A DNA stretch of 64,000 nucleotides from positions 124,001-188,000 of the forward strand of contig NZ_SNYN01000004.1 in assembly GCF_004363075.1 (NCBI RefSeq), in the 5' to 3' direction. The translations under genes and the position numbers were made by a program. Shown in pieces: positions 3,349 through 27,138 of the stretch (position 1 is the first letter of the stretch; each line of letters opens with the position of its first letter). The DNA is from Actinorugispora endophytica. GTDB taxonomy: Bacteria > Actinomycetota > Actinomycetes > Streptosporangiales > Streptosporangiaceae. Below the pieces are notes generated by a model. It saw nothing but the letters and a program-made list of their open reading frames with translations. It did not search any database and was not told the origin of the DNA.

Positions 3349-4050
3349 TCAGTGGCGGGCGCTCCACAGGACGAAGACGCCGCCGGCGATGAGGGAGAGG
3401 GCCCAGACGCGGTCCATGGTGGCCCAGCGCAGCCGAAGCGCGTGCACGGCGAAGAAGTCGTGCACCACCAGCGCCGCGACCCCCGTGGCGGCGACCATCG
3501 CCAGTGTGTGCACGCCCGCGGCGGCCAGCCCCAGCAGGGTCGCGTCGAACAGGTCGGGAAGGCCGGGGGCCGCCGGGGCAGGGGAGGGGGAGGGGGCCGG
3601 AACCGCCGCGACCCCGTGCGAGTGGCCTCCGGCGGCCGCCGCGCCGCCGTCGACCCGGCCCGCCAGCACGGGCAGCAGCATCAGCCCCGAGCCGTGCAGC
3701 AGGGACATCACGAAGGACCACGCGGCCAGCCGCCGCAGCGGCACCCGCACCGGGGGCCGGTGCGCGTGCGTCGGGCGCAGCAGCAGCCACGCCCCGGCCG
3801 CGCACACCACGAGCCCGCCCCCGACGGTGAACCAGCGCGCGGCCGGCGTCGTCCCGGTCGCCGTGACGGCCACCGCCACCAGCGCGACCGAGGCCGCGTG
3901 CCCCAGGGCCAGAGCGGGGAGGGCGCCCACGACGGCGGCCCGGCTGCGCTCCTGCAGGCCGCGCGAGACCGCGAACGGCCAGCCCATCCCGGGGTTGACC
4001 CCGTGGAACACCCCCAGCCCGATCAGGACCCACAGCTGTCCCGAGGTCAT
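3349..4050 (-). CDS. Polytopic membrane protein with histidine-containing motifs
   Basis: A 233-residue protein with about six hydrophobic segments. The first carries HGVNPGMGWP and a central one ends in SLLHGSGLMLLP. A loop rich in His, Gly, Ala and Pro (around residues 135-160) follows. Short His motifs in the first and fourth helices recall NicO/UreH-type metal or sulfur exporters, but the similarity is only of general design. No regulator is adjacent. The divergent gene is a flavin reductase. I do not assign a substrate. Confidence 0.6.
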   Translation of the reverse strand: MTSGQLWVLIGLGVFHGVNPGMGWPFAVSRGLQERSRAAVVGALPALALGHAASVALVAVAVTATGTTPAARWFTVGGGLVVCAAGAWLLLRPTHAHRPPVRVPLRRLAAWSFVMSLLHGSGLMLLPVLAGRVDGGAAAAGGHSHGVAAVPAPSPSPAPAAPGLPDLFDATLLGLAAAGVHTLAMVAATGVAALVVHDFFAVHALRLRWATMDRVWALSLIAGGVFVLWSARH

Positions 4051-12439: not shown

Positions 12440-15400
12440 GTGCTTTGTCGGCTTCTGCTGGATCGGGTGCTCGTGGTGTTCGGTGTGCGTTGGTGTGCTG
12501 GTGTGCTGGCCGGAGCGGTCGCGGCGGGTCTGCTGTGGACCGCCCCCGCGGCGGCGGACGACGGGGAGTCGCCCGACGGCGCGGCCCAGGAGCAGCAGGC
12601 CCTCGACCAGGCCGAGGAGACGGGCGAGCCGGTCGAGATCGTCTCGGCCACCGACGAGCGGTCGCAGGTCTTCGCCAACCCCGACGGCACGTTCACGCTC
12701 CAGACCCACCCCTCCCCGGTGCGGGTGCGCACGGGCGGCGGATGGCGGGACGTGGACACCACGCTGGTGCGCGCCGACGACGGGACCGTGCGGCCCCGGG
12801 CCACGGCCGCGGACCTGGTCTTCTCCGGCGGCGGCGACGACGCGCTGGCCCGGGTCTCACTCGGCGGCCGCTCGGTCGCGCTGGACTGGCTGGGAGCGCT
12901 CCCCGAACCGGTCCTGGAGGCCGACCGCGCCACCTACCCCGAAGTGCTCCCGGACGTGGACCTGGTGGTGAGCGCCGGGGTCGACGGGTTCACCCAGGTG
13001 CTCGTGGTGCGCACCGCCGAGGCCGCCGCCAACCCCGCCCTGGCCCAGCTGGACCTGCCGGTCCAGGGCACCGGAGTGACGATCGAGGCCGACGAGACCG
13101 GGAACCTGGACGCCGTCACCCCCGAGGGCGAGAGCGTGTTCGTGGCCTCGGCGCCCGCCATGTGGGACTCCTCCGGCCAGGACGGGCAAGGCGACACCGG
13201 CGCGGCCGCCCGCGCCCTGGCCCCCGCCACGGGAGCGCGGATGGAGCAGGTGCCCACCGAGGTCGTCGACGGCGCGCTGCGCCTGCGGCCCGACCAGGAG
13301 ATGCTCACCGACGAGGCCACCACCTACCCGGTGTTCATCGACCCCTCGGTCTCGGTCAAGCGCGAGGCGTGGGCCTACGTCGACAAGCGCTTCCCCACCA
13401 CCGCCTACTACAACAAGTCCGACGCCGACAGCGGCGTGGGATACGAACCCCAGTACGGCCACACCAAGCGCGTGTTCTGGCGGTTCAGCGTCTACGAGCG
13501 AACCCGCAACGCCACGATCCGGTCCGCCACCCTGCGCACCGAGGTCGCCCACGCCTTCGGCTGCACCGACGCGCGCGTCGAGCTCTAGCGCACCGGCGGC
13601 ATCAGCTCCGCCACCACCTGGAGCGACCAGCCCGACAAGCTGACCCGCCTCGACACCGAGACCGTGGACAAGGGCCGCGCCGGCTGCGAGGGCTCGGGCG
13701 TGGAGTTCGACGCCACCGCCGCCTACGAGTGGGGCCGCGCCAACGGCAAGGCCGACATCATCCTCGGCTTGTACGGCAACGAGACCGTGTCGGGCTCCAA
13801 CCACGACTGGCGGCGCTTCAAGAAGAACCCGTCCCTGGTCGTGGTCTACAACAACGCCCCCGCGACCCCGGCCACCTCCGCCATGCGCGACTCCCACGGC
13901 GGCGCCTGCGCCACCGACCCCGCCAGGCCGCGCCTGGTCAACTCGGCCACACCGCGCCTGTACGCCCAGGTGAGGGACACCGACTCCAAGTACGCCGCCC
14001 AGAAGGCCAAGGCCCAGTTCCAGATCCAGTCCGACGGAACCACGATCCAGACCAGGGACTCGACCTCGGCCGACGTCGCCAAGTGGCCCTCGGGCAGCGA
14101 AAGGTCGGTCACCGCGAGCGCGCTGCCCGAGGACACGCTGATCCGGTACCGGGCCCGCGCCCACGACGGGACCGTGTGGGGCTCCTGGTCCGGCTGGTGC
14201 CACCTGCGGGTCAACACCACCAACCCCGAGACCGGCCCCCAGGTGACCTCGACCGACTACCCCGAAGGCGATGCCGCTTCGGGAAGCGTCGGCAAACCGG
14301 GGGAGTTCACCTTCGCCAACAACGGCGTGACCACCGCCACGGCCTACCACTACGGCCTCAACGACGACACCTGCGCCACCGAGCTGACCCCCGCCAGCCA
14401 GGGCGGATCGGTCACCGCCACCCTCACCCCCCGCACCGACGGACCGAACCTGGTCTACGCGCGCACCACCGACGGCTTCGGCAACTCCTCGGCGTGCGCG
14501 CTGGCGTACACGTTCCTGGTCGCCCCGCCCAGCCACCCGGTCGCGCACTTCACCTTCGACGAGGGCACCGGCACGACCGCCGCCGACTCCCGCCAGGACG
14601 GGCGCGCGGCCACGGCCACGGCCGGGGTGGACTGGATCCGCGGCCGGGTCGGCGCGGTCGAGGACAACGCCCCCCGCCTCGAAGGCACCGCCGTCCACAC
14701 CCACGGCTACGTTCCCGCCGATCCGGCCTGGGACGAGATCACCGTCCCGGGCCCCGTCGTGGACACCGGCGAGACGTTCTCCGTGGCCGCCTGGGTGAAG
14801 ATGGACGACAAGAACGCCCACCACACCGCGATCGGCCAGGACGGCGCCCAGCAGAGCCCCTTCCACCTGGGCTACCAGAAGGACCAGGACGCCTGGGTGT
14901 TCAAGATGTCGCCCGCCGACGCCCCCGCCGACGGGACCGCCGGATGGGCCTACGCGCTGTCCGCCGAACCGGCGCGGACCGGGGTGTGGACCCACCTGCT
15001 GGGCACCTACGACGCCGTCACCGGCGAGGTCGCCCTGTACGTGGACGGCGTCAAGCAGGGGACCGCCACACAGGAGAGCGCCTGGTCCACCACCGGCCCC
15101 CTCACCCTGGGACGCGGCAAGTACCAGGGCGTGAAGAACTACTACTGGGCCGGCGGCATCGACGACGTCAAGATCTGGGACCGCCTCGTCACCGACACCG
15201 CGCTGGACGACGGCGCCTCGGAGGCGTGGACGCTCGCCAACCGACCTGTCACGTTGGAAGGACGGTGGAAGCTCGACGAGACGGAGGGCACCACTGCCGC
15301 GGACTCCAGCGACCACGGTCTGACCGGCACCCTCACCGGCGACCCCGCCACCGTGTGGAACACCGCGTTCAACGACGTCGTGTACATCCCCGGCGCCACC

Positions 15401-15934
15401 CTGAACGGCACCGACGAGCGCATCGCCACCACCGGCCCCGCGATCCGCACCGACTCCAGCTTCAGCGTCGCCGCGTGGGTCCGCCTGGACGCCACCACTA
15501 CCGACAACCCCACCGCCCTCAGCCAGAGCGGCACCGAGCACAGCGGCTTCTACCTCGGCCGGCAGAGCACCTACGGGATGAACAACTGGACGCTCAAGAT
15601 GCCGCCGTCGGACACCGTCGGAGCCTCGGGCTGGCCCAAGGCCCTGTCCGCCCAGCCTCCCGAACTCGGCGCCTGGACCCACCTGGCCGCCACCTTCGAC
15701 GCCACCACCGGCACCATGACCCTCTACGTCGACGGCGTCGAACAGGGCACCGCCACCCAGGCCACCCCCTGGCACGCCGACGGCCCCGTCGTCATCGGCG
15801 ACGCCCGGTTCGAGGGGGCACCGGCCGGCCTGTGGAACGGCGACCTCGCCGACGTCCACGTCTACCAGGGCGTCCTCAGCGAGGACGACATCGGCTACCT
15901 GAAATACGGATTCGGACCACCAGTGAATCGATAA
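12440..15934 (+). pseudogene. Secreted DNRLRE/LamG-domain protein interrupted by an in-frame TAG
   Basis: The frame would encode about 1164 residues but has a TAG at 13586-13588, at codon 383. It encodes an N-terminal signal peptide (hydrophobic run ending in TAPAAA at about residues 28-34), a long beta-rich region with YPVFIDPSVSV as in DNRLRE-type proteins, and two LamG folds (about residues 700-930 and 940-1164, each with GRWKLDE- or VAHFTFDEGTG-like starts and LYVDGV strands). The stop sits in a conserved-looking VEL*RTGGISSATTW stretch where TGG (Trp) would fit, so a single G-to-A change explains it. It lies 85 bases before the RHS toxin gene and was probably co-exported with it. A sequencing error or amber readthrough remains possible. 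The start may be any of several nearby GTGs. Confidence 0.8.
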
Positions 15935-16019
15935 CCGATTCACGGTTCTTCGCCTTCCTCTGCCATCCCCTGCTGAAACGACGGTCCGGCGATTGACGAC
16001 GCCGGACTGGAGGAGCCCA

Positions 16020-19000
16020 ATGTCCGAGCCCGGTTCGCCGTCCCACCCCCGCACCCCCGTGCGCAGCATCCTGTCGTTCCTTCTCTCCCTGGTGATGCTC
16101 ACCGGGCTGCTGGTTGCCATCCCGGCCTCGGCGATGGCCTACAACACCAGACCCGACGTCGAGGACGACGAGCCGATCCCGGGAACCGATGCCCCCGACG
16201 CCCGGATCGTCCGAGACGACACGATCGACGACGCCGCCGTCACCGACCTGGGCGACCCCGCGTGGCCGACGGAGGCCAGCACCGAGGACGACCTCGCCGC
16301 CCCCGAGTCCGCCGAGGCCGACACCCCACCGGTCCCCGGTGAGGAGGAGACGGTCGCGATCGCCCCGGTCAACACCGAGGTCTTCGACGGATGGACGTCC
16401 CCCCTTCCCGGTGATGCCCCCGGCACCGGGGAGAGCCAGGGCGGAGACTCCCAGAACACCCCCGAGCCGAGCCCCGCGCCCCAGGACCCGGAACCGTCGC
16501 CCTCGCAGCAGGAAGGTCCGCCCCCCGAGGCGCAGCCGTCCTCGGAACCGGAGCAGGCCCGGGACGAACCCGGGGCGGCGGAGCAGGAGGAGGCCGCCGA
16601 GGCCGCGCCGGCCGGGGTCGAACCGGTGCGCAGCGCGCGCGTGGAGGTTCTGGACCAGGCCACCGCCGAACAAGCCGGGGTCACCGGTGTGCTGCTGCGC
16701 CTGACCCGAACCGACGGCGCCCAGACCACCGGCCCGGTCCAGATCGGCCTCGACTACGCCGACTTCGCCCCCGCTTTCGGCGCCGACTACGCCTCCCGCC
16801 TCGAACTCGTCGCTCTGGACGACTGCGTCCTCGATGCCGACGCCGCCGAGTGCGCGCCCGCGATCGACCTCGCCTCGGACAACCAGCCGCAGGTGATGAG
16901 GCTCAACGCCGTCGCCCCCGCAGCGGCGGGGGAGGGAACCCTCCTGGCTGCGGTGGCCGACAGCGAGGGCGAGACCGGCGACTACAAGGCGACCGAGCTC
17001 AACGCCGCGTCCAGTTGGGACGTGGGACTGCAGACCGGTGACTTCAACTGGGCCTACCCGATCAACGTCCCGGGGACCGCGGCCGGCCTCAAGCCGACCG
17101 TCGGGCTCAGCTACTCCTCGGGGTCGGTCGACGGGCGCACCGCCTCCTCCAACAGCCAGACCTCCTGGATCGGAGAGGGGTTCAGCTACGCCGCCGGGTA
17201 CATCGAGCGCAGCTACAAGCCGTGCGCGGACGACGGCCAAGCCGAGGGCGAGAAGACCGGGGACCAGTGCTGGTCCCGGCACAACGCCACCCTGTCGCTC
17301 AACGGCAAGGGCGGCGAGCTGATCCTCGACGAGGACGGCACCTGGCGGATGCGCAGCGACGACGGCACCAGGATCGAGCGGCTGACCGGCGCGGACAACG
17401 GCGACAACGACGGCGAGCACTGGAAGGTCACCACCACCGACGGCACCCAGTACTTCTTCGGCCGCAACCGGCTGCCCGGCTGGGAGAGCGGCGACCCCGA
17501 GACCGACTCGGCGTGGACCGTGCCGGTGTACGGCAACGACTCGGGCGAGCCCTGCCACGAGTCGACGTTCGCCGCCTCTTGGTGCCAGCAGGCGTACAAG
17601 TGGAACCTCGACTACGTGGTCGACGTGCACGGAAACGTCGTCACCTACCACTACGCCGAGGAGCGGAACCACTACGGCCGCAACCTCAAGACCACGGCCA
17701 CCCCGTACGTCCGGGGCGGTTACCTCACCCACATCGACTACGGCCTGCGCTCCGACGACGTCTACGCCACCGCCCCGGCCCGGGTGAAGTTCACCGTCGG
17801 CGAGCGGTGCCTCCCCACCGACGGCTTCGACTGCGCGCCGTCCAAGTTCACCGAGGCCAACGCCTCCAAGTGGCCCGACGTCCCGTTCGACCAGCACTGC
17901 GCCGTCGGAACCCCGTGCACCAACCGCTTCTCGCCCACGTTCTGGACCCGTAAGAAACTCGACAAGGTCACCACCCAGGTCCACGACGGCACCGCGTACA
18001 CCGACGTGGACTCCTGGGCCCTGGAGCACAAGTACCCCGCTCCCGGTGACGGCACCACCCCGTCGTTGTGGCTGAACTCCGTCACCCACACCGGCCACGT
18101 CGGCGGCACCGCCACCTCGCCGAAGGTGACCTTCGCGGGAACGGCGCTGGAGAACCGGGTCGACGGGCTCTCCGACGGCCTGGCGCCGATGCTCAAGTAC
18201 CGGATCACCTCCGTCTACACCGAGACCGGAGGCCAGGTCGACATCACCTACTCCGGCGAGGACTGCGCCCGGGGCTCCACGCCCAAGCCCCACGACAACG
18301 GCAAGCGCTGCTACCCGGTCCGCTGGACACCGGAGGGCGACGCCGAGCTCACCGACTGGTTCCACAAGTACGTCGTCACACAGGTCGCCGAGATCGACCT
18401 GGTCACCGACCAGCCCGACATGGTCACCACGTACGAGTACCTGGGCGGGGGCGCGTGGCGGTACGAGGAGGCCGACGGCTTCACCAAGGACAAGTACCGG
18501 ACCTGGTCCGACTGGCGCGGATACGAACGCGTCAAGGTGATATCCGGGGCTCCCGGCGAACAGCAGTCCGAGACCGAGCACCTGTTCTTCCGCGGTATGC
18601 ACGGCGACAAGCAGCCTTCGGGCACTCGCTCGGTCACCGTCACCGACTCCGAGGGCGGCATCCACACCGACCACGACGAACTCAACGGCGCCACCCGCGA
18701 GGAGATCATCCGCAACGGCCCGGGCGGCGCGGTCGTCGAGAAGACCATCACCACTCCGTGGCGCAAGAAGACCGCCGAGCGCGACTACTCGTGGGGAACG
18801 GTCTCGGCTTACCTGATCGACACCGCCTCCAGCCGCACCTACACCGCCGTCGACGACGGCTGGCGTCAGACCCGGGTCGACACCGCCTTCGACGACTACG
18901 GGTTTCCCACACAGGTCCACGACTACGGCGACGCCGCTCTCGACACCGACGACGAGTGCACCCGCACCACGTACACGCGCGACACGAGCGCGTGGATCCT

Positions 19001-22000
19001 GGACACCACCTCGCGCGAGGAGGTCGTCGCAGCCTCCTGCGCGCAGGCCCCAGAACGCCCCGCCGACGTGATCAGCGACAGCCGGACCTTCTACGACGGG
19101 GGAGCCTTCGGCGCGGCTCCGACCAGGGGCCTGCCCACCACGACCGAGCGGCTGGCCTCCTACGACGGAACCACCCCCGTCTACGAGACGAGCGAGCAGA
19201 CCGCCTACGACGCCTACGGGCGCGAGACCTCCTCCACCAACGCCGCGGGCCACACCACCAGGACCGGCTACGAGTCCGCGGTCCCCGGCGGCGCGCCCAC
19301 GGTCGTCACCGACGAGAACGCGCTCGGGCACACCGCCACCCAGTACATGGACCCCGCACGGTCCATGCTCGTCGCCACGGTGGACGCCAACAAGAACCGC
19401 ACCGACCTGCAGTACGACCCTCTGGGCCGGCTCACCGCGGTGTGGCTGGCCGACCGCGACAAGAGCACGGCGACACCCAGCCTGAAGTTCGAGTACCGCG
19501 TCCGCAACGACGCGCCCACCACCGTCGTGGCCTCGGCGGTGCGCAACGACGGCGGTTACAACTCCACCTTCACCCTCTACGACGCGTTCCTGCGCGAGCG
19601 CCAGATCCAGTCTCCGGCCGTGGGAGGCGAGGGACGCCTGGTCGCCGACACCTTCCACGACTCGCGCGGCCTGGCCGTCAAGAGCCGCGAGGCCTACTTC
19701 AACGCCGCCGCCGAGCCCGGCGACACCCTTCTCGTCGTCAACAACGACGACGAGATTCCCCGCTACTCCGAGACCGTCTACGACGGAGCCGAACGCCCCA
19801 CCGTCGTGCGCCACGTCTCGCGCGGCGAGGAGCAGTGGAGCACCACCACCGAGTACAGGGGCGACCGGACCCTCGTCACCCCGCCGGACGGCGACACCGC
19901 GACCACCACCATCACCGACGCCCGCGACCGGGTGGTGGAACTGCGCCAGCACCACGCCCCCACACCGACCGGCGCCTTCGACGCCACCACCTACACCTAT
20001 GCCAAGAACGGCGAGCTGGCCACCGTCACCGACCCCGCGGGCAACGTGTGGGAGACCACCTACGACCTGCGCGGACGCAAGATCCAGGCCGTCGACCCCG
20101 ACGCCGGGACCAGCACCTACACCTACGACGCGCTCGACCAGCTGGCCACCTCCACCGACGGGCGGGGCGAGACCGTCGCCTACACCTACGATGTGCTCGG
20201 CCGCAAGACCGGCCTGTACGACGACTCCCCGCAAGGAACCCAACGCGCCGGCTGGGTGTACGACACCCGCGCGAAGGGGCAGCTGACCTCGTCGACCAGG
20301 TACACCGATGACGGCGACTACACCAACGCGGTCCTGAGCTACGACAAGATGTACCGGCCGCTCGCCGAGACGGTCACCATTCCCGCGTCAGAGGGGCCGC
20401 TCGCAGGGACCTACCGCTACATCCGCTCCTACAACCCCGACGGCACGGTCAAGGACATGGCCTTCCCTCGGGCGGGAGGGCTGAGCGCCGAGCCGGTCAC
20501 CTTCGGCTACAACGAACTGGGCATGCCCACCACGGTCAAGGGCATCAACACCTACGTCGCCGAGGCCATCTACTCCAGGACCGGCAACCTGCTGCAGCGA
20601 ACCTTTCTGCGCGGCAGCACGGCTGACGAGACCTGGATCACGCGTGTCTTCGACGAGGCCACCAACCGCATGTCGCTGACTAGCGTCGTGCCCGAAGTCG
20701 GATCAGGATCGCTCCTCACCCAGAGCTACGAGTACGACGACGCGGGCAACATCCTGCGCATCGCGGACAAGCCCACCGGGCTCGAGCTGCCCACCGACAC
20801 CCAGTGCTTCACCTACGACCACCTGCGCCGCCTCACCAACGCCTGGACACCGGAGAGCACCGAGACCGGCGGGTGCGAGGCGGCCCCGACCACCGCGGGC
20901 CTGGGCGGCGCGGCCCCGTACTGGCATTCCTACACCTACGACGCGGTCGGCAACCGCGAGACCGAGGTCCAGCACGCCGCGGGCGGCGACATCACCCGCA
21001 CCTACACCCAGCCCGAGCCGGGCCAGGACCAGCCGCACGCCGTCACCCGGGTCGAGCAGACCGGTCCCGGCGGCGACCAGCTGGAGCAGTACGGCTACGA
21101 CGACGCGGGAAACCTGACCAGCCGCGTCACCCCCGCCTACGACCAGACCCTGGAGTGGGACGCCGAGGGAAAGCTGGTCCGGGTCACCGACGGCGACGCC
21201 CAGACGGAGTTCCGCTACGGCGCGGACGGTTCCCGGCTGGTCCGCGAGACGCCCACCGACGCGACTCTGTACCTGCCCGGTATGGAGGTGCGGATGGACA
21301 AGGCCGCGTTCTCGCTGGAGGCCACCCGCTTCTACGACCACGGCGGTGAAGGGGTAGCAGTCCGAGAGAACGACAACAAGCTGAGCTGGCTGTTCGCCGA
21401 CCACCACGGCACCGGGGAGCTCTCCGTCGACTCCGAGACCGGCGAGAGCACCCGGCGCCGCTTCACGGCGTTCGGTACCGACCGGGGTTCGAGCGGTGAG
21501 TGGCCGAGCCAGCGGGGGTTCGTGGGCGGGACTCTGGACACGTCGGTCGGTCTGACCCAGTTGGGGGCCAGGGCCTACGACGCGGCGATCGGCCGGTTCG
21601 TCTCTCCGGACCCAGTCGTCGACTTCACCGACCCCCAGCAGATCCACGGCTACGCCTACTCGGGCAACAACCCCGTCACCTTCACCGACCCCACCGGGCT
21701 GCTGACCAAGAAGTTCGGCGGGCGGCCCACCAAGATGGGGGGCGGAAGGTTCAAGACCAAGAACCGTGGGCGGGGACCCAAATCCGCCGCGGGCGGTGGC
21801 GGTGGTGGCGGCTATTCGGGTGGGGGTGGTTCGGGGGGCGGTTCCTATCGGCCCAGTGCGGGAAACGCGGTCTACCAGGGGATCCAGGGTGCGAACGCGG
21901 CGTTCAACCGGGTTCCGTTCGCCTCCCAGTACCGGGACTCCCAGGCGGGTGCCGTCGTGGCGCTCATGGAGATGAGCCCGATGGGGTGGGCCGGCAACTA

Positions 22001-23123
22001 CGCGCTCCAGCACACGACCGGGATGGGTTTCGCCGACAGCCTGCGCCTCTTCGGCGTCAACCAGGACTCGGGCTGGTACACCAGCGGCTACGTCGGCGCC
22101 TACATCGCCTCGATGATCACTCCCGGCGGCTGGGGCGCCGGCGGGATTCGCGCGGCCGTTCTGGGCGGGAAAGCGGCGCTGAAGCTGGGCGGTCTGAAGG
22201 GCTTGGGCGCCTTCGCCGCGAACGGAGCCAGAAGCGCCGGGTCCTACGCGGCCAACGCGGTGAGGAACGGGTGGCAGTCGGCCGGAAACGCCATCCGGGG
22301 ATGTGCGGGAAACAGCTTCGTTCCCGGGACCCGGGTGGTGATGGCCAACGGCGGCAGCAAGGCCATCGAGGACGTCGAGGTCGGCGACACGGTCCTGGCC
22401 ACCGACCCCGACACCGGGAACTCCGAGGCCAAGCCGGTGCTGGCCACCATCACCGGCTCGGGAAACAAGCACCTGGTCGAGATCACCGTCGACACCACCA
22501 CCGAGAAACCCGCCGGAGAAGATGGTAATGGAGAAGGCGCGCCGGGCCCTGTTGTATTTGGTGATGAAATTGTCGCTACTGGAGGGCATCCATTTTGGGT
22601 TCCTGAAAAAAATGAATGGGTAGATGCAAGTGATCTGACTCCTGGGATGTGGCTTCTCACTATTTCGAATAGTTGGGTTCAGGTCACTGCGGTTCGCATA
22701 TGGAGTCAGAATTCTACGGTCCATAACCTTACAGTCGATGACATAAATACTTATAATATTCGACTGAATGATTCCTCTGTTCTTGTTCATAATAGGAATA
22801 AGGTATGTGGCCTTAGGCTTTCTGATCCGAACCCGATTCCAAGAGTGATCCGTGAGCAGTATGAGGAGATAAGAGCGGGCCGTGGGACCCCCAGGCCTGA
22901 TGGTGTCGGAGGGCAACAGGTATACCAGGGAAGGGAACTCTTGAGCAGGCAGAGAGCGCAGTGGTCTGGGTCTTTGGAGTGGGATGTTCCCGGAACCAGT
23001 CATCGAATTTTGCAGCGTCTTGATGGTAATTTGGGGTATGTTCTAAACCATGATTACAGTAGTCCTTTTCTTTTTCCTGCGCCGTGGTATCCGGAAGGTG
23101 GGGCTATCCCCAGAAGACTTTAA
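16020..23123 (+). CDS. Secreted RHS-repeat polymorphic toxin with HINT domain and barnase-like tip
   Basis: A 2367-residue protein. Order: signal peptide (about 1-43, SFLLSLVMLTGLLVAIPASA), acidic Pro/Glu/Ser-rich linker (45-200), a beta-rich shell region, YD/RHS repeats (about 1050-1850), and the RHS core end FVSPDP..YAYSGNNPVTFTDPTGL (about 1860-1895). A HINT self-processing domain follows at about 2098-2258 (NSFVPGTRVVMANGG, TGGHPFWVP, NTYNIRLNDSSVLVHN). The last ~109 residues carry GRELL, LEWDV, HRILQR and LNHDY; Arg and His are 15 residues apart as in barnase (R87, H102), with the Glu in LEWDV as the likely third catalytic residue. The role is therefore an RNase delivered to competitors. 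The ATG at 16020 has GGAGGAG upstream. From about 22520 the base composition and codon use change abruptly to AT-rich, marking an acquired tip. Immunity is encoded next. Confidence 0.9.
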   Translation: MSEPGSPSHPRTPVRSILSFLLSLVMLTGLLVAIPASAMAYNTRPDVEDDEPIPGTDAPDARIVRDDTIDDAAVTDLGDPAWPTEASTEDDLAAPESAEADTPPVPGEEETVAIAPVNTEVFDGWTSPLPGDAPGTGESQGGDSQNTPEPSPAPQDPEPSPSQQEGPPPEAQPSSEPEQARDEPGAAEQEEAAEAAPAGVEPVRSARVEVLDQATAEQAGVTGVLLRLTRTDGAQTTGPVQIGLDYADFAPAFGADYASRLELVALDDCVLDADAAECAPAIDLASDNQPQVMRLNAVAPAAAGEGTLLAAVADSEGETGDYKATELNAASSWDVGLQTGDFNWAYPINVPGTAAGLKPTVGLSYSSGSVDGRTASSNSQTSWIGEGFSYAAGYIERSYKPCADDGQAEGEKTGDQCWSRHNATLSLNGKGGELILDEDGTWRMRSDDGTRIERLTGADNGDNDGEHWKVTTTDGTQYFFGRNRLPGWESGDPETDSAWTVPVYGNDSGEPCHESTFAASWCQQAYKWNLDYVVDVHGNVVTYHYAEERNHYGRNLKTTATPYVRGGYLTHIDYGLRSDDVYATAPARVKFTVGERCLPTDGFDCAPSKFTEANASKWPDVPFDQHCAVGTPCTNRFSPTFWTRKKLDKVTTQVHDGTAYTDVDSWALEHKYPAPGDGTTPSLWLNSVTHTGHVGGTATSPKVTFAGTALENRVDGLSDGLAPMLKYRITSVYTETGGQVDITYSGEDCARGSTPKPHDNGKRCYPVRWTPEGDAELTDWFHKYVVTQVAEIDLVTDQPDMVTTYEYLGGGAWRYEEADGFTKDKYRTWSDWRGYERVKVISGAPGEQQSETEHLFFRGMHGDKQPSGTRSVTVTDSEGGIHTDHDELNGATREEIIRNGPGGAVVEKTITTPWRKKTAERDYSWGTVSAYLIDTASSRTYTAVDDGWRQTRVDTAFDDYGFPTQVHDYGDAALDTDDECTRTTYTRDTSAWILDTTSREEVVAASCAQAPERPADVISDSRTFYDGGAFGAAPTRGLPTTTERLASYDGTTPVYETSEQTAYDAYGRETSSTNAAGHTTRTGYESAVPGGAPTVVTDENALGHTATQYMDPARSMLVATVDANKNRTDLQYDPLGRLTAVWLADRDKSTATPSLKFEYRVRNDAPTTVVASAVRNDGGYNSTFTLYDAFLRERQIQSPAVGGEGRLVADTFHDSRGLAVKSREAYFNAAAEPGDTLLVVNNDDEIPRYSETVYDGAERPTVVRHVSRGEEQWSTTTEYRGDRTLVTPPDGDTATTTITDARDRVVELRQHHAPTPTGAFDATTYTYAKNGELATVTDPAGNVWETTYDLRGRKIQAVDPDAGTSTYTYDALDQLATSTDGRGETVAYTYDVLGRKTGLYDDSPQGTQRAGWVYDTRAKGQLTSSTRYTDDGDYTNAVLSYDKMYRPLAETVTIPASEGPLAGTYRYIRSYNPDGTVKDMAFPRAGGLSAEPVTFGYNELGMPTTVKGINTYVAEAIYSRTGNLLQRTFLRGSTADETWITRVFDEATNRMSLTSVVPEVGSGSLLTQSYEYDDAGNILRIADKPTGLELPTDTQCFTYDHLRRLTNAWTPESTETGGCEAAPTTAGLGGAAPYWHSYTYDAVGNRETEVQHAAGGDITRTYTQPEPGQDQPHAVTRVEQTGPGGDQLEQYGYDDAGNLTSRVTPAYDQTLEWDAEGKLVRVTDGDAQTEFRYGADGSRLVRETPTDATLYLPGMEVRMDKAAFSLEATRFYDHGGEGVAVRENDNKLSWLFADHHGTGELSVDSETGESTRRRFTAFGTDRGSSGEWPSQRGFVGGTLDTSVGLTQLGARAYDAAIGRFVSPDPVVDFTDPQQIHGYAYSGNNPVTFTDPTGLLTKKFGGRPTKMGGGRFKTKNRGRGPKSAAGGGGGGGYSGGGGSGGGSYRPSAGNAVYQGIQGANAAFNRVPFASQYRDSQAGAVVALMEMSPMGWAGNYALQHTTGMGFADSLRLFGVNQDSGWYTSGYVGAYIASMITPGGWGAGGIRAAVLGGKAALKLGGLKGLGAFAANGARSAGSYAANAVRNGWQSAGNAIRGCAGNSFVPGTRVVMANGGSKAIEDVEVGDTVLATDPDTGNSEAKPVLATITGSGNKHLVEITVDTTTEKPAGEDGNGEGAPGPVVFGDEIVATGGHPFWVPEKNEWVDASDLTPGMWLLTISNSWVQVTAVRIWSQNSTVHNLTVDDINTYNIRLNDSSVLVHNRNKVCGLRLSDPNPIPRVIREQYEEIRAGRGTPRPDGVGGQQVYQGRELLSRQRAQWSGSLEWDVPGTSHRILQRLDGNLGYVLNHDYSSPFLFPAPWYPEGGAIPRRL

Positions 23124-23174
23124 GGGAAAATTCCCGATTTGTTGTGCTAGGTTTCTGTGAGCTTGGAGGCTGTG

Positions 23175-23954
23175 GTGAGAGAGTATTGGTTTTCGTTGAC
23201 AGGGGAAGAGGATTTGGCTTCAATTGCCAAAGCAAGAGAGATTGGTGGCCTTGTTTCTAACTGGGAAGAACCTCTTCCGAGTCGGATAATATTTTGGATG
23301 CTTGAATGCAGTTTGGGGGCGTCTTTGTTTGAAAAACTAGCAGCCCGAAAAAATGGAGATAAGACCGGTAGTTTAAATTTGGGTAATGCAAATATTCATA
23401 TTCTTGGAATGAATGGAGATATTATTGGTTCCTATTTCCTAGGGGATGTAACGATTGAAGGATTTTATAAAAAGGGCATACTTTTCGATCTGAAAATTTC
23501 AGGAATTTTATTTGATCGGCTGACCAATGATTCATGGAAGATTTGGGATTTTTGCAAAAGGGGAAAAATTGATTCTCGAAATATTTGGATTAACTTTTCT
23601 CGTGAAATGAAAACTGCTTGGCTTGAAGTGGCTAGAGTCAGAATGGTTGAGAATTTTGGAAAACTAAAAAATCTGGAGTCGGGATCTATGTTTTATTTTG
23701 ATGGAAGACATGTCGTAGATGAACTCAGCTTCTACTGTGCATTGGGTGAGGCAATCAATGGACCAGGAGGGTATTTCGGGAAAGGAGTGGATTCTTTTAA
23801 TGACTGCCTGAATGGTGGATTTGGCGCAATCCGCCCATTTAAACTTAACTGGAAAATTAATAAATACTCAAATGATCTACAGTGGGATCCATTTTGTGGT
23901 GAAATTGGGAAAATTTTTAAAGAAAAGGGAATTGAAGTCAATTATTACTACTGA
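23175..23954 (+). CDS. Immunity protein with C-terminal barstar-like domain
   Basis: About 259 residues, strongly AT-rich compared with the core genome. The last ~90 residues follow the barstar pattern: a strand ending FDGRHVVDELSFY, then GGYFGKGVDSFNDCLNGGFG (compare the YYGENLDALWDCL helix of barstar), FKLNWKI, and a final helix-strand GKIFKEKGIEVNYYY. The N-terminal ~170 residues are a separate region I do not recognise. It starts 51 bases after the toxin stop. GTG 23175 follows GGAGG (23165-23169); GTG 23157 is an alternative. Barstar blocks barnase-type RNases, matching the toxin tip upstream. Confidence 0.8.
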   Translation: MREYWFSLTGEEDLASIAKAREIGGLVSNWEEPLPSRIIFWMLECSLGASLFEKLAARKNGDKTGSLNLGNANIHILGMNGDIIGSYFLGDVTIEGFYKKGILFDLKISGILFDRLTNDSWKIWDFCKRGKIDSRNIWINFSREMKTAWLEVARVRMVENFGKLKNLESGSMFYFDGRHVVDELSFYCALGEAINGPGGYFGKGVDSFNDCLNGGFGAIRPFKLNWKINKYSNDLQWDPFCGEIGKIFKEKGIEVNYYY

Positions 23955-24013: not shown

Positions 24014-24627
24014 ATGAGGTACTCCACCGGCGGCGGGCTGACCGCCGCAGAACGCCAGCGACGCGAGGCGGTACGCATGGCCGCCGCGGACGACTTCGAC
24101 TCCGGAGCCACCGATACCCGGGTCGCCCGCGTCTACCAGGTCACCCACATGTCGGCCTGGCGATGGCACCACGCCTACGAAACCGGCGGCAGGCAGGCCT
24201 TGGAAACCAAGGGAGCCGCCTCGCACCGCCCCCTGAGCGAGGGGGAACTGGACCTACTGCAACAGCTCTTGGACCTGGGCCCGGCCGCGCACGGCTTCGC
24301 CGACCAGCGCTGGACCCTGGCCCGGATCAGAGCGGTGGCAGCCGAGCACTTCGATGTGACCTACTCACTCGCGGGCATGTCCCTGCTCCTGCACCGGCTC
24401 GGGGGGAGCGTGCAGGTCCCCACGCGACGCGCCGCCGAACGCGACGACGAGACCATCCGGGAGCGGGCCAGAGCGGCAGGCCGCTCATCACGCGTACCTG
24501 GGGCAGACGGGGCCTCACCCCGGTGATCACCGTCACCGGAGCGGGTCGGGGCCGGGGCAGCGTGGCCGCCCTGTGCTGCTACAAACCCGGACACAGGCCC
24601 CGGTTGCTGTACCGGCTGCACTCCTAG
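24014..24627 (+). pseudogene. IS630-family transposase remnant
   Basis: The first part (24014 to about 24470) encodes the N-terminal HTH region, with LTAAERQRREAVRMAA, RVARVYQVTHMSAWRW and the HRLGGSVQVP end of the winged-helix part. After about 24480 similarity resumes in another frame (ITRTWGRRGLTPVITVTG, CCYKPGHRPRL), so the catalytic DDE segment between them has been deleted and the frame is shifted. It stops at a TAG that abuts a second copy of RHS sequence. Confidence 0.85.
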
Positions 24628-25411
24628 ACTCGGGCTGGTACACCAGCGGCTACGTCGGCGCCTACATCGCCTCGATGATCACTCCCGGTAGTTGGGGTGC
24701 CGGCGGGATTCGCGCGGCTGTTCTGGGCGGGAAAGCGGCGCTGAAGCTGGGCGGTCTGAAGGGCTTGGGCGCCTTCGCCGAGAACGGAGCCAGAAGCGCT
24801 GTTAGATCCGGGTGGCAGTCAGCAAGAAATACAGTTAGTAGTTGCCTTACAGGTAGGTCTAATAGCTTTATTCCGGGCACCCGAGTGTTGATGGCCAACG
24901 GCGGCAGCCAGGCTATCGAGGACATCGAGGTCGGCGACACGGTCCTGGCCACCGACCCCGAAAGCGGAGAACAGGAAGCCAAGACGGTCCAGGCCACCAT
25001 CACCGGCTCGGGAATGAAGAACCTCGTCGAGATCACCGTCGATCCCGTTACCGAGAAACCCGCTGGCGAAAACGGTGACACAGACCCCGCCCCTGGCCCG
25101 GTGGTGGTCGGCGACACCATCACCGCCACCGACGGCCACCCCTTTTGGGTTCCCGAATTGGGTGAGTGGGTCGACGCCGAGAACCTGACCCCGGCACCTG
25201 GTTGCACACCTCCGCAGGCACCTGGATCCAGATCACCGCAGTCCGGGAGTGGACCCAGAGTGTCACCGTCCATAACCTCACCGTTAAGGACATCCACACC
25301 TACCACGTGCAAGCTGATTCTGGGGTCTGCCCCACTGACGCCCAGATGCGTGCCCGCGCGCCGGTCAGCGAGGTCCCGGCCTCGTCTTCGAACACCGCAC
25401 TAGCTGTATGA
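24628..25411 (+). pseudogene. Displaced RHS/HINT tail, frameshifted
   Basis: From 24628 this repeats, nearly base for base, the RHS toxin from about 22069 (SGWYTSGYVGAYIASMITPG) and continues into a HINT domain (SFIPGTRVLMANGGSQAIEDIEVGDTV, TDGHPFWVPELGEWVDAENL). At about 25190 one C is missing relative to the copy at 26.2 kb, and HINT sequence continues in another frame (GTWLHTSAGTWIQITAVREW to IHTYHVQADSG). It has no RHS shell and no start of its own. Its tip is cut by an IS481 remnant near 25400. Confidence 0.85.
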
Positions 25412-26136
25412 GGCCATCACGTTGGTGACACCGGTTGGGAGCCGCGAGGCTGGCGGTTGGCCGTCGGCAGTGCCGTGAGGGCGATGGTAGTTGTAGTGGA
25501 CGTTCCACATGCCGAGCGCGGCTACGCGTTCGTCTTCGGAGGTCCATTCGCGGGCGTAGAGGAACTCTTCGGTCAGGATCCGTTTGTGGCGCTCTACCTT
25601 GCCGTTGTGTCGAGGTATGCAGGGCGTGATGCGCTGGTGACGTGACCCGAGTAGTGCTCGGGCGAACGCGTCTGCGCGGTAGCGCGCGCCGTTGTCGGTG
25701 ACGATCCGCTCGATACGGGTGATGCCGTGGGCGGCGAACCAGGCGCGCCCGGTGCATGAACCCGATGGCGGTGCTGACCTTCTCCTTGGGCAGAGCTTCT
25801 GTGTAGGCGAGCCGGCTGAAGCCGTCGATGGCGGAGTGGAGGTAGACGTAGCCGCCGCGCTTGTTCTTCCTCTTCAGACGCTCGGTCGCCTTGGCCTGTG
25901 CGCTCCCACAGCCGTGGGCTCTCCGGCCACCGCCGTCTGGGATTCGACTGACCTTCTTCACATCGACGTGGACCATGTGCCCCGGTCGACGCGCCGTGAT
26001 CTTCCGCGGCTCCCAGTTCGGTTCGCCGATCGGGTCGATGAATTTCCGGTGGTTCAGCCCCAGTGCGAGCAGGTGCCGCGAAACCGTGCGCCGACTGATC
26101 GACATCCCCTCTGACTGGAACTCGAACGGGATCCGC
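25400..26136 (-). pseudogene. IS481-family transposase remnant
   Basis: The reverse strand carries the DDE part of an IS481 transposase: SISRRTVSRHLLALGL, RRPGHMVHVDVKKVSRIPDGGG, GYVYLHSAIDGFSRLAYTEALP, and, after a frameshift near 25755, VTDNGARYRADAF and the C-terminal TNVMASYS stop at 25400. The N-terminal third is missing. Both ends abut displaced HINT sequence. It is not functional. Confidence 0.85.
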
Positions 26137-26700
26137 GATGCTGACCCCTTCTGGGTCCCCGAAGCAGGCCAGTGGATCGACGCCGGGGACCTGACCCCCG
26201 GTACCTGGCTGCACACCTCCGCAGGCACCTGGGTGCAGGTCACCGCGGTCCGGAAGTGGACCCAGACCACCACCGCCCACAACCTCACTGTTGAAAACCT
26301 GCACACGTACCATGTGCTGGCCGGGCAGACACCGGTCCTCGTCCACAATTCCGGTGGATGTCCGACGGTGGGCCTCCTCAGCCCATCGCACCAGGCCGTC
26401 GGTGATTCCAATGCTAGGGGCGGCATCTATGCGTTGGTTTCGGAGAACGGAACGGTGATGCGAACGGGTATGGCCACGGATCTGCAGTCTCGTCTCGCCA
26501 CGCACCGACGGAACTATCCTGGTCTGACGGGCGTGGTCCTCTATCGGACGGATAATCGGGCTGCGAGGCGAGGTCTGGAGGAAATGGTCGAGAATTGGTA
26601 CACGCCAATCCTGGCTAATCAAAGGGCGATCCGTCTCGACAATCCGCGACGCCAAGGATACTTGCAAGCTACGCGTGATTTTCTGGATCAGTGGAGGTGA
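26137..26700 (+). pseudogene. Displaced HINT tail with GIY-YIG nuclease-like toxin tip
   Basis: In-frame HINT C-terminal half (PFWVPEAGQWIDAGDLTPGT, TYHVLAGQTPVLVHN to about 26350) is followed by a ~115-residue tip. The tip has GGIYALVSENGTVMRTGMATDLQSRLATH, the layout of a GIY-YIG nuclease with the second motif written RTG, and a later LEEMVENW that could hold the catalytic Glu. The 5-prime half of the HINT domain has been replaced by the IS481 remnant, so there is no shell, export signal or natural start. The cassette may serve as a donor for recombination. Its immunity gene is intact next door. Confidence 0.8.
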
Positions 26701-26709
26701 GTGGACGGT

Positions 26710-27138
26710 ATGAGTGCTTCAGGTGTAGGGCCATTCGAGAACGACTCGGCGATGGATCTGCTCGATGAGCTGCGAGGACTTGATGAGGGCGAGGTGATCG
26801 ACGCGCTGCGTGAGGCGTTGTCGTCCGCTACTGAAGTCGAGCCCGGAGACTATCTTGATCGCGACTTGGGCGAGCCGGCGGTAGCTGCTTCGGCTGTTGC
26901 TTTGGCGAAGATCAAGGGAAGAGATAGTGTCCTCGAAGCGGTCGAACTTTTGGATGCGGTCCCCGAGATTCCGTCCTCCTTCTTCTCGCTGGTTGTTTCG
27001 GCTCTTTCCAGGGTGCTGCAAGAGGATTCCGAGGCTTATGGCCTGTGGGTCGATGAAGGCCTCGGGGACGAGTGGAAAGCTGAAGTGGAACGTCTGCTGA
27101 ACGAAGCCAGCGAGGTTGCCCAAGGGGCATCAGGCTGA
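26710..27138 (+). CDS. DUF4259-family protein, probable immunity to the GIY-YIG tip
   Basis: A 142-residue acidic protein whose start (GVGPFENDSAMDLLDEL) is the signature of DUF4259, a family common beside polymorphic toxin tips. The rest is helical with VDEGLGDEWKAEVERLLNEA near the end. It begins 9 bases after the toxin-tip stop; ATG 26710 is chosen because GGAGGTGA lies at 26693-26700, although GTG 26701 is possible. The immunity role is inferred from position. It appears intact although the toxin has lost its carrier. Confidence 0.8.
   Translation: MSASGVGPFENDSAMDLLDELRGLDEGEVIDALREALSSATEVEPGDYLDRDLGEPAVAASAVALAKIKGRDSVLEAVELLDAVPEIPSSFFSLVVSALSRVLQEDSEAYGLWVDEGLGDEWKAEVERLLNEASEVAQGASG

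What the first reader, a model, noticed from the sequence alone, without database searches (positions are those of the whole stretch)
13586..13588. Single amber codon splitting the secreted LamG protein
A TAG at codon 383 separates a signal-peptide half from two LamG domains in the same frame, with continuous similarity on both sides. TGG would fit the context. It is either a recent loss in the gene preceding the toxin, an amber readthrough, or an error.
Basis: seen in the sequence. Interest (0 to 1): 0.5.

Follow-up and report, generated by a model that had tools for sequence, protein, structure and literature searches.

The report
Recent nonsense mutation in toxin-partner gene
A single stop codon cuts in two a gene for a secreted surface protein that sits just before an intact bacterial competition toxin; relatives carry a sense codon there, so this looks like an ordinary recent gene loss (or, less likely, a sequencing error), not a special way of reading the stop.

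Summary
The TAG at 13586-13588 is real in this assembly: codon 383 of one frame (start GTG 12440, end 15934). It lies inside a DNRLRE/CBM96-type domain, upstream of two Laminin_G_3 domains. Of 127 alignable copies of the gene from the same bacterial family, this window's is the only one with a stop there; 105 have Trp, 16 His, 5 Gln. A codon model finds similar constraint before and after the stop on this lineage (omega 0.176 and 0.175; background 0.151 and 0.140; neutrality rejected), so the stop arose late or is an error. Programmed readthrough has no support: release factor 1 is present, none of 53 detected tRNAs reads UAG, other genes end in TAG, and no unusual RNA structure follows. The RHS-HINT toxin gene downstream is open, constrained, and followed by a Barstar-domain gene. 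Some relatives have breaks elsewhere in the same gene (G344 by TAA, G149 by TAG, others by frameshift) with the RHS gene open, so such loss recurs. A sequencing error cannot be excluded without reads or a second strain; no second genome of the genus is held. Interest is low.

The parts
12440..13585 (+). N-terminal part of the DNRLRE-LamG gene (signal peptide-like start, first half of the DNRLRE/CBM96-type domain), open, 382 codons
   Evidence: domain assigned from intact relatives, (G347 segment: NF033679 E 6.1e-10 and CBM96 E 1.7e-7, both over their cut-offs); the own N part alone has no match
13586..13588 (+). in-frame TAG (codon 383)
   Evidence: only stop at this column among 127 alignable copies
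13589..15934 (+). remainder of the gene in the same frame: rest of the DNRLRE-type domain, linker, two Laminin_G_3 domains, ordinary stop
   Evidence: omega 0.175 on this lineage, neutrality rejected p 7e-4
15993..23123 (+). RHS gene with RHS repeats, RHS core and PT-HINT domain, open over 2376 codons from TTG (a likelier start is ATG 16020, preceded by AGGAG)
   Evidence: omega 0.146 on this lineage
23157..23954 (+). likely immunity gene with a Barstar domain
   Evidence: PF01337 E 1e-5, over its cut-off

Best explanation
The gene upstream of the RHS toxin encodes a secreted surface protein with a DNRLRE/CBM96-type domain and two LamG domains, probably a wall- or glycan-binding partner of the toxin. 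In this strain a recent point mutation created a premature TAG inside the DNRLRE-type domain. Translation should end there and give a 382-residue fragment with half a domain; the LamG part lacks a signal peptide and has no good internal start (one weak GAGG-preceded GTG at 13700), so it is probably not made or not exported. The toxin gene and its Barstar-domain neighbour stay open. Shown: the stop, its uniqueness at this column among the copies examined, conservation of the gene and of the gene order, constraint on both sides, no UAG-reading tRNA among those found. Inferred: that the mutation is real rather than a sequencing error, that the protein is lost, and that the partner's job is surface binding.
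For: Sense codon in 126 of 127 alignable copies, Trp in 105 (1 of the 128 fetched copies gave no hit). Own-lineage omega 0.176 (N) and 0.175 (C) against background 0.151 and 0.140, likelihood-ratio p 0.63 and 0.47; omega = 1 rejected at p 2.9e-5 and 7e-4. For the C part 2dlnL is 3.96 at omega 0.1, 2.37 at 0.3 and 4.70 at 0.4, so roughly a quarter of the branch at most could have been neutral (my arithmetic). RF1 over its cut-off; 53 tRNAs found, no CTA anticodon. TAG ends 8 of 34 coding-like ORFs in the window, this stop among them and one an antisense ORF at 13848 that is probably no gene, so 6 others. RNA after the stop: z 0.72. In-frame stops in G344 (TAA) and G149 (TAG) and frameshifts in G171, G147, G150, G162, G212: with this one 8 of 88 copies by strict count, none of the 8 with a flagged RHS break.
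Against: No reads and no second strain: the genus is represented by this genome only, so a base error in a 44-contig draft cannot be excluded. Constraint on both sides would also be seen if the full protein were still made. The breaks in relatives may include sequencing errors, frameshifts above all, and the next 40 copies had only one broken copy, already seen. The tRNA search may miss unusual tRNAs.
Confidence: 0.8

Rival explanations
1. Sequencing or assembly error: the genome has a sense codon there and the gene is intact.
For: No other stop or frameshift found in the gene; constraint undiminished on both sides; a conserved column in relatives; draft assembly in 44 contigs.
Against: Single-base errors are rare in a finished consensus (general knowledge, not tested here); breaks of this gene occur in relatives, including a TAA in the close relative G344, whose genome is listed as one contig.
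Confidence: 0.14
2. Amber readthrough or recoding: ribosomes pass the TAG and make the full protein, or make both forms.
For: The frame stays open and constrained after the stop.
Against: RF1 present; no CTA anticodon among 53 tRNAs found; other window ORFs end in TAG; no TAG at this column in the 126 other alignable copies; no excess structure after the stop; breaks in relatives lie at other places and are of several types.
Confidence: 0.04
3. Functional truncation: the 382-residue fragment is secreted and has a role of its own.
For: Signal peptide-like start is intact; in G149, G150, G162 and G212 the break lies in a linker just after the DNRLRE-type domain, which would leave that domain whole.
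Against: Here the stop lies inside the domain, not after it; the linker cluster was not seen again in the next 40 copies.
Confidence: 0.02

Closest known systems
Nonsense-mutation pseudogene (single premature stop) in bacteria
   Same: One in-frame stop, frame otherwise open, relatives with sense codons, constraint for most of the branch
   Different: No difference seen; loss of function itself was not tested
WapA-type RHS toxins with DNRLRE domain (Streptococcus suis WapA-CT1, PMC12704120, passages seen)
   Same: DNRLRE domain linked to an RHS polymorphic toxin with a signal sequence; the paper places DNRLRE in the N-terminal wall-binding part
   Different: Here DNRLRE and LamG lie on a separate gene in front of the RHS gene
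Polymorphic toxins with Laminin-G adhesion domains (PMC3482391, passages seen)
   Same: That paper says laminin-G domains of such toxins are likely to help anchor the toxin to the producer's wall
   Different: There the domain sits on the toxin itself; here on a separate protein

Membership tests
Pseudogene by nonsense mutation | premature in-frame stop where relatives have sense codons | tested here: met
   126 of 127 alignable copies sense, own TAG
Pseudogene by nonsense mutation | no full-length product | not testable with these tools
   needs proteomics
Pseudogene by nonsense mutation | relaxed selection on the broken part (seen in old pseudogenes, not expected in a recent one) | tested here: not met
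   omega 0.175 after the stop against background 0.140, p 0.47
Programmed amber readthrough or UAG recoding | suppressor tRNA or missing RF1 | tested here: not met
   unusual tRNAs could be missed
Programmed amber readthrough or UAG recoding | stop conserved at the same place in relatives | tested here: not met
   0 of 126 other alignable copies
DNRLRE / CBM96 domain protein | match to NF033679 or PF24517 over cut-off | tested here: met
   in the intact relative G347; at E up to 1, DNRLRE in 5 of 8 and CBM96 in 4 of 8 relatives scanned; the own N part alone gives no match, nor does the whole own frame with X
RHS polymorphic toxin locus | RHS repeats and core, HINT, C-terminal cassette, immunity gene next to it | tested here: met
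   that the C-terminal end is a nuclease is inferred from the Barstar-domain neighbour only

The most novel reading that the evidence does not exclude
The DNRLRE-LamG partner of this family's RHS toxins is conditionally dispensable and is lost again and again while toxin and immunity are kept: of the three copies in the closest clade (this one, G344, G347) two carry different premature stops and all three RHS genes are open. The partner would then be a display or anchoring module whose loss changes how the toxin is presented rather than whether it works.
Probability: 0.12. Interest if true: 0.4.

Novelty: new member of a known kind. Interest (0 to 1): 0.18.

Why it matters
It resolves an apparent oddity into an ordinary event and warns against counting this TAG as recoding. 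The side result, breaks of the DNRLRE-LamG partner in several relatives beside an open RHS gene, gives natural variants with which the partner's unknown role could be studied.

Tried and rejected
Readthrough: tested by tRNAs, RF1, TAG use, conservation and RNA structure; no support. Reinitiation giving an exported C part: in-frame starts from the TAG to 14400 have at best a 4-base purine match, at 13700, and no signal peptide by eye; judged unlikely.

Hotspot idea: in the first 88 copies 4 of 8 strictly counted LamG-gene breaks (G149, G150, G162, G212) fell in one linker, at about residues 470-505 in this copy's numbering (my estimate), and broken copies were more frequent per kb in the LamG gene than in the RHS gene (8 in 300 kb against 4 in 464 kb, two-sided binomial p 0.073). 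I wrote the prediction down and fetched 40 more copies: only G245 was broken, already seen, and not in the linker. Neither idea is supported.

Rows dropped: one search flagged 17 of 88 LamG and 7 of 85 RHS copies; the strict count drops breaks up to reference residue 70, within 30 residues of the LamG end, or beyond RHS residue 1820, leaving 8 and 4. References are stop-to-stop, so their ends may be non-coding; G164 (a frame change at reference residue 44) was dropped so and is unresolved. With more references flags 10 of the same 88 LamG copies; the two extra (G151, G217) lie near the start of a reference and have open frames of 1216 and 1139, so I treat them as boundary artefacts. One search also flags RHS breaks in 8 of 88 and 4 of 40 loci; one search shows that six of its RHS matches (L201, L215, L218, L224, L235, L250) begin more than 300 bases before the end of the LamG match, four of them about 1.8 kb before, so its RHS counts are not reliable and I use. 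In one search G245 shows both a LamG and an RHS flag, against the pattern that the two do not coincide.

In the four-ratio codon model the intact copy G347 has the highest C-part omega (0.238; own 0.186, G344 0.165), so omega does not mark the broken copies.

Structure prediction: not run. The tool names the sources it accepts and the fetch from genomes is not among them; I expected a single-sequence model of this domain to be weak. The nearest relevant solved sequence match is weak (8wab, a DNRLRE protein, E 0.31, below two antibody chains). Named relatives by genome contigs: none confirmed. Papers: in the listings I saw no title or abstract start naming this gene pair; that speaks for those searches only.

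Full report
What is there. The window lies in contig 4 of a 5.25-Mb, 44-contig genome, the only one of its genus in the collection. The frame 12440-15934 holds one internal stop, TAG at 13586-13588, codon 383. The part after it has two Laminin_G_3 stretches. The part before gives no family match alone, but the same region of the close relative G347 matches DNRLRE (NF033679, E 6.1e-10) and CBM96 (PF24517, E 1.7e-7), both over their cut-offs. The stop column lies inside that match, so the stop cuts a domain.

Neighbours. The gene is followed by an RHS gene with RHS repeats, RHS core and PT-HINT, open for 2376 codons, and by a gene with a Barstar domain. That the toxin end is a barnase-like nuclease is inferred from this neighbour only. 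The order DNRLRE-LamG then RHS is widespread: of 128 fetched copies from 103 genomes, 116 have an RHS match starting between 300 bases before and 600 bases after the end of the LamG match; of the rest, 4 have one further on, 6 have a match that starts earlier (partly inside the LamG gene and doubtful), and 2 have none.

Uniqueness. In 341 genomes of the family, 141 have a match to the 198 residues around the site at E up to 1e-20; of the listed matches (150 rows by my count; the list is cut) only this window's has a stop inside. Of the 128 fetched copies (this one, 87 relatives, then 40 more, all from that list), 127 align at the site: 105 Trp, 16 His, 5 Gln, 1 stop. In the 30 rows with loci, aligned, the 29 others also have a residue there, Trp in 10; that set is more distant.

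Age. With eight copies and a codon model, the lineage of this window has omega 0.176 before and 0.175 after the stop, close to the background (0.151, 0.140; p 0.63 and 0.47); omega 1 is rejected for both parts (p 2.9e-5 and 7e-4). The C-part interval runs from about 0.1 to between 0.3 and 0.4. The own branch is long (0.8 to 1.5 neutral substitutions per codon site in the model's units), so this bounds a share of the branch, not years. The RHS gene on the same lineage has omega 0.146. In the four-ratio model the intact G347 has a higher C-part omega (0.238) than the two broken copies.

Decoding. RF1 is found over its cut-off. The tRNA family search found 53 genes; ARAGORN named their anticodons and none is CTA. 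TAG ends 8, TGA 25 and TAA 1 of 34 coding-like ORFs in the window; the eight include this stop and an antisense ORF that is probably no gene. RNA after the stop folds no better than shuffles (z 0.72; four other stretches of the gene -1.43 to -0.07). Readthrough has no support beyond the open frame.

Other breaks. In the first 88 copies (76 genomes) 8 have an internal break by strict count: stops here, in G344 (TAA) and in G149 (TAG); frameshifts in G171, G147, G150, G162 and G212. By the same rule 4 of 85 RHS genes are broken, none beside a broken partner. Among the next 40 copies only G245, already seen broken, has a broken LamG gene, and its RHS gene is flagged too. A LamG excess over RHS is not significant (p 0.073), and a linker hotspot suggested by four of the breaks did not recur. 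Frameshifts in drafts may be errors. Of the three copies in the closest clade two carry different stops, which is suggestive but small.

Literature. PMC3482391 (passages) says laminin-G domains of polymorphic toxins are likely to help anchor the toxin to the producer's wall. PMC12704120 (passages) places a DNRLRE domain in the N-terminal wall-binding part of an RHS/WapA toxin. PMC9971899 (one passage) links DNRLRE to the CBM96 module. From these I infer, without test, that the broken protein is a surface-binding partner of the RHS toxin.

Verdict. An ordinary recent nonsense mutation (0.8) or a sequencing error (0.14); readthrough 0.04; functional truncation 0.02.

Noticed in passing
window 24014-27138: Behind the toxin and Barstar-domain genes lie two further HINT-bearing pieces (24573-25403 and 25861-26700), a helix-turn-helix piece that looks transposase-derived (24014-24526) and a DUF4259 gene (26701-27138): looks like displaced toxin cassettes with mobile-element remains.
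   Followed up: partly
L134 (G344), position 2382 on the reverse-complemented locus: The close relative G344 has a different premature stop (TAA) in the same gene, with its RHS gene open.
   Followed up: partly
L137/L174 (G150), L138/L176 (G149), L139/L178 (G162), L140/L190 (G212): Four breaks in relatives' LamG genes fall in one linker just after the DNRLRE-type domain; not repeated in 40 further copies.
   Followed up: yes
window 15993-23123 against L133 and L134: The RHS gene is closer to that of G344 (74.5% identity) than to that of G347 (64.2%), while the LamG tree joins G347 with G344: parts of the locus may have been exchanged.
   Followed up: no
window 39176 (minus strand): A TGA with coding signature on both sides is the end of one gene whose neighbour starts a few bases on; by my reading of the sequences these are ABC-transporter parts, no family search was run. 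Similar signals at 3351 (minus) and 50821 (plus) were not examined.
   Followed up: partly
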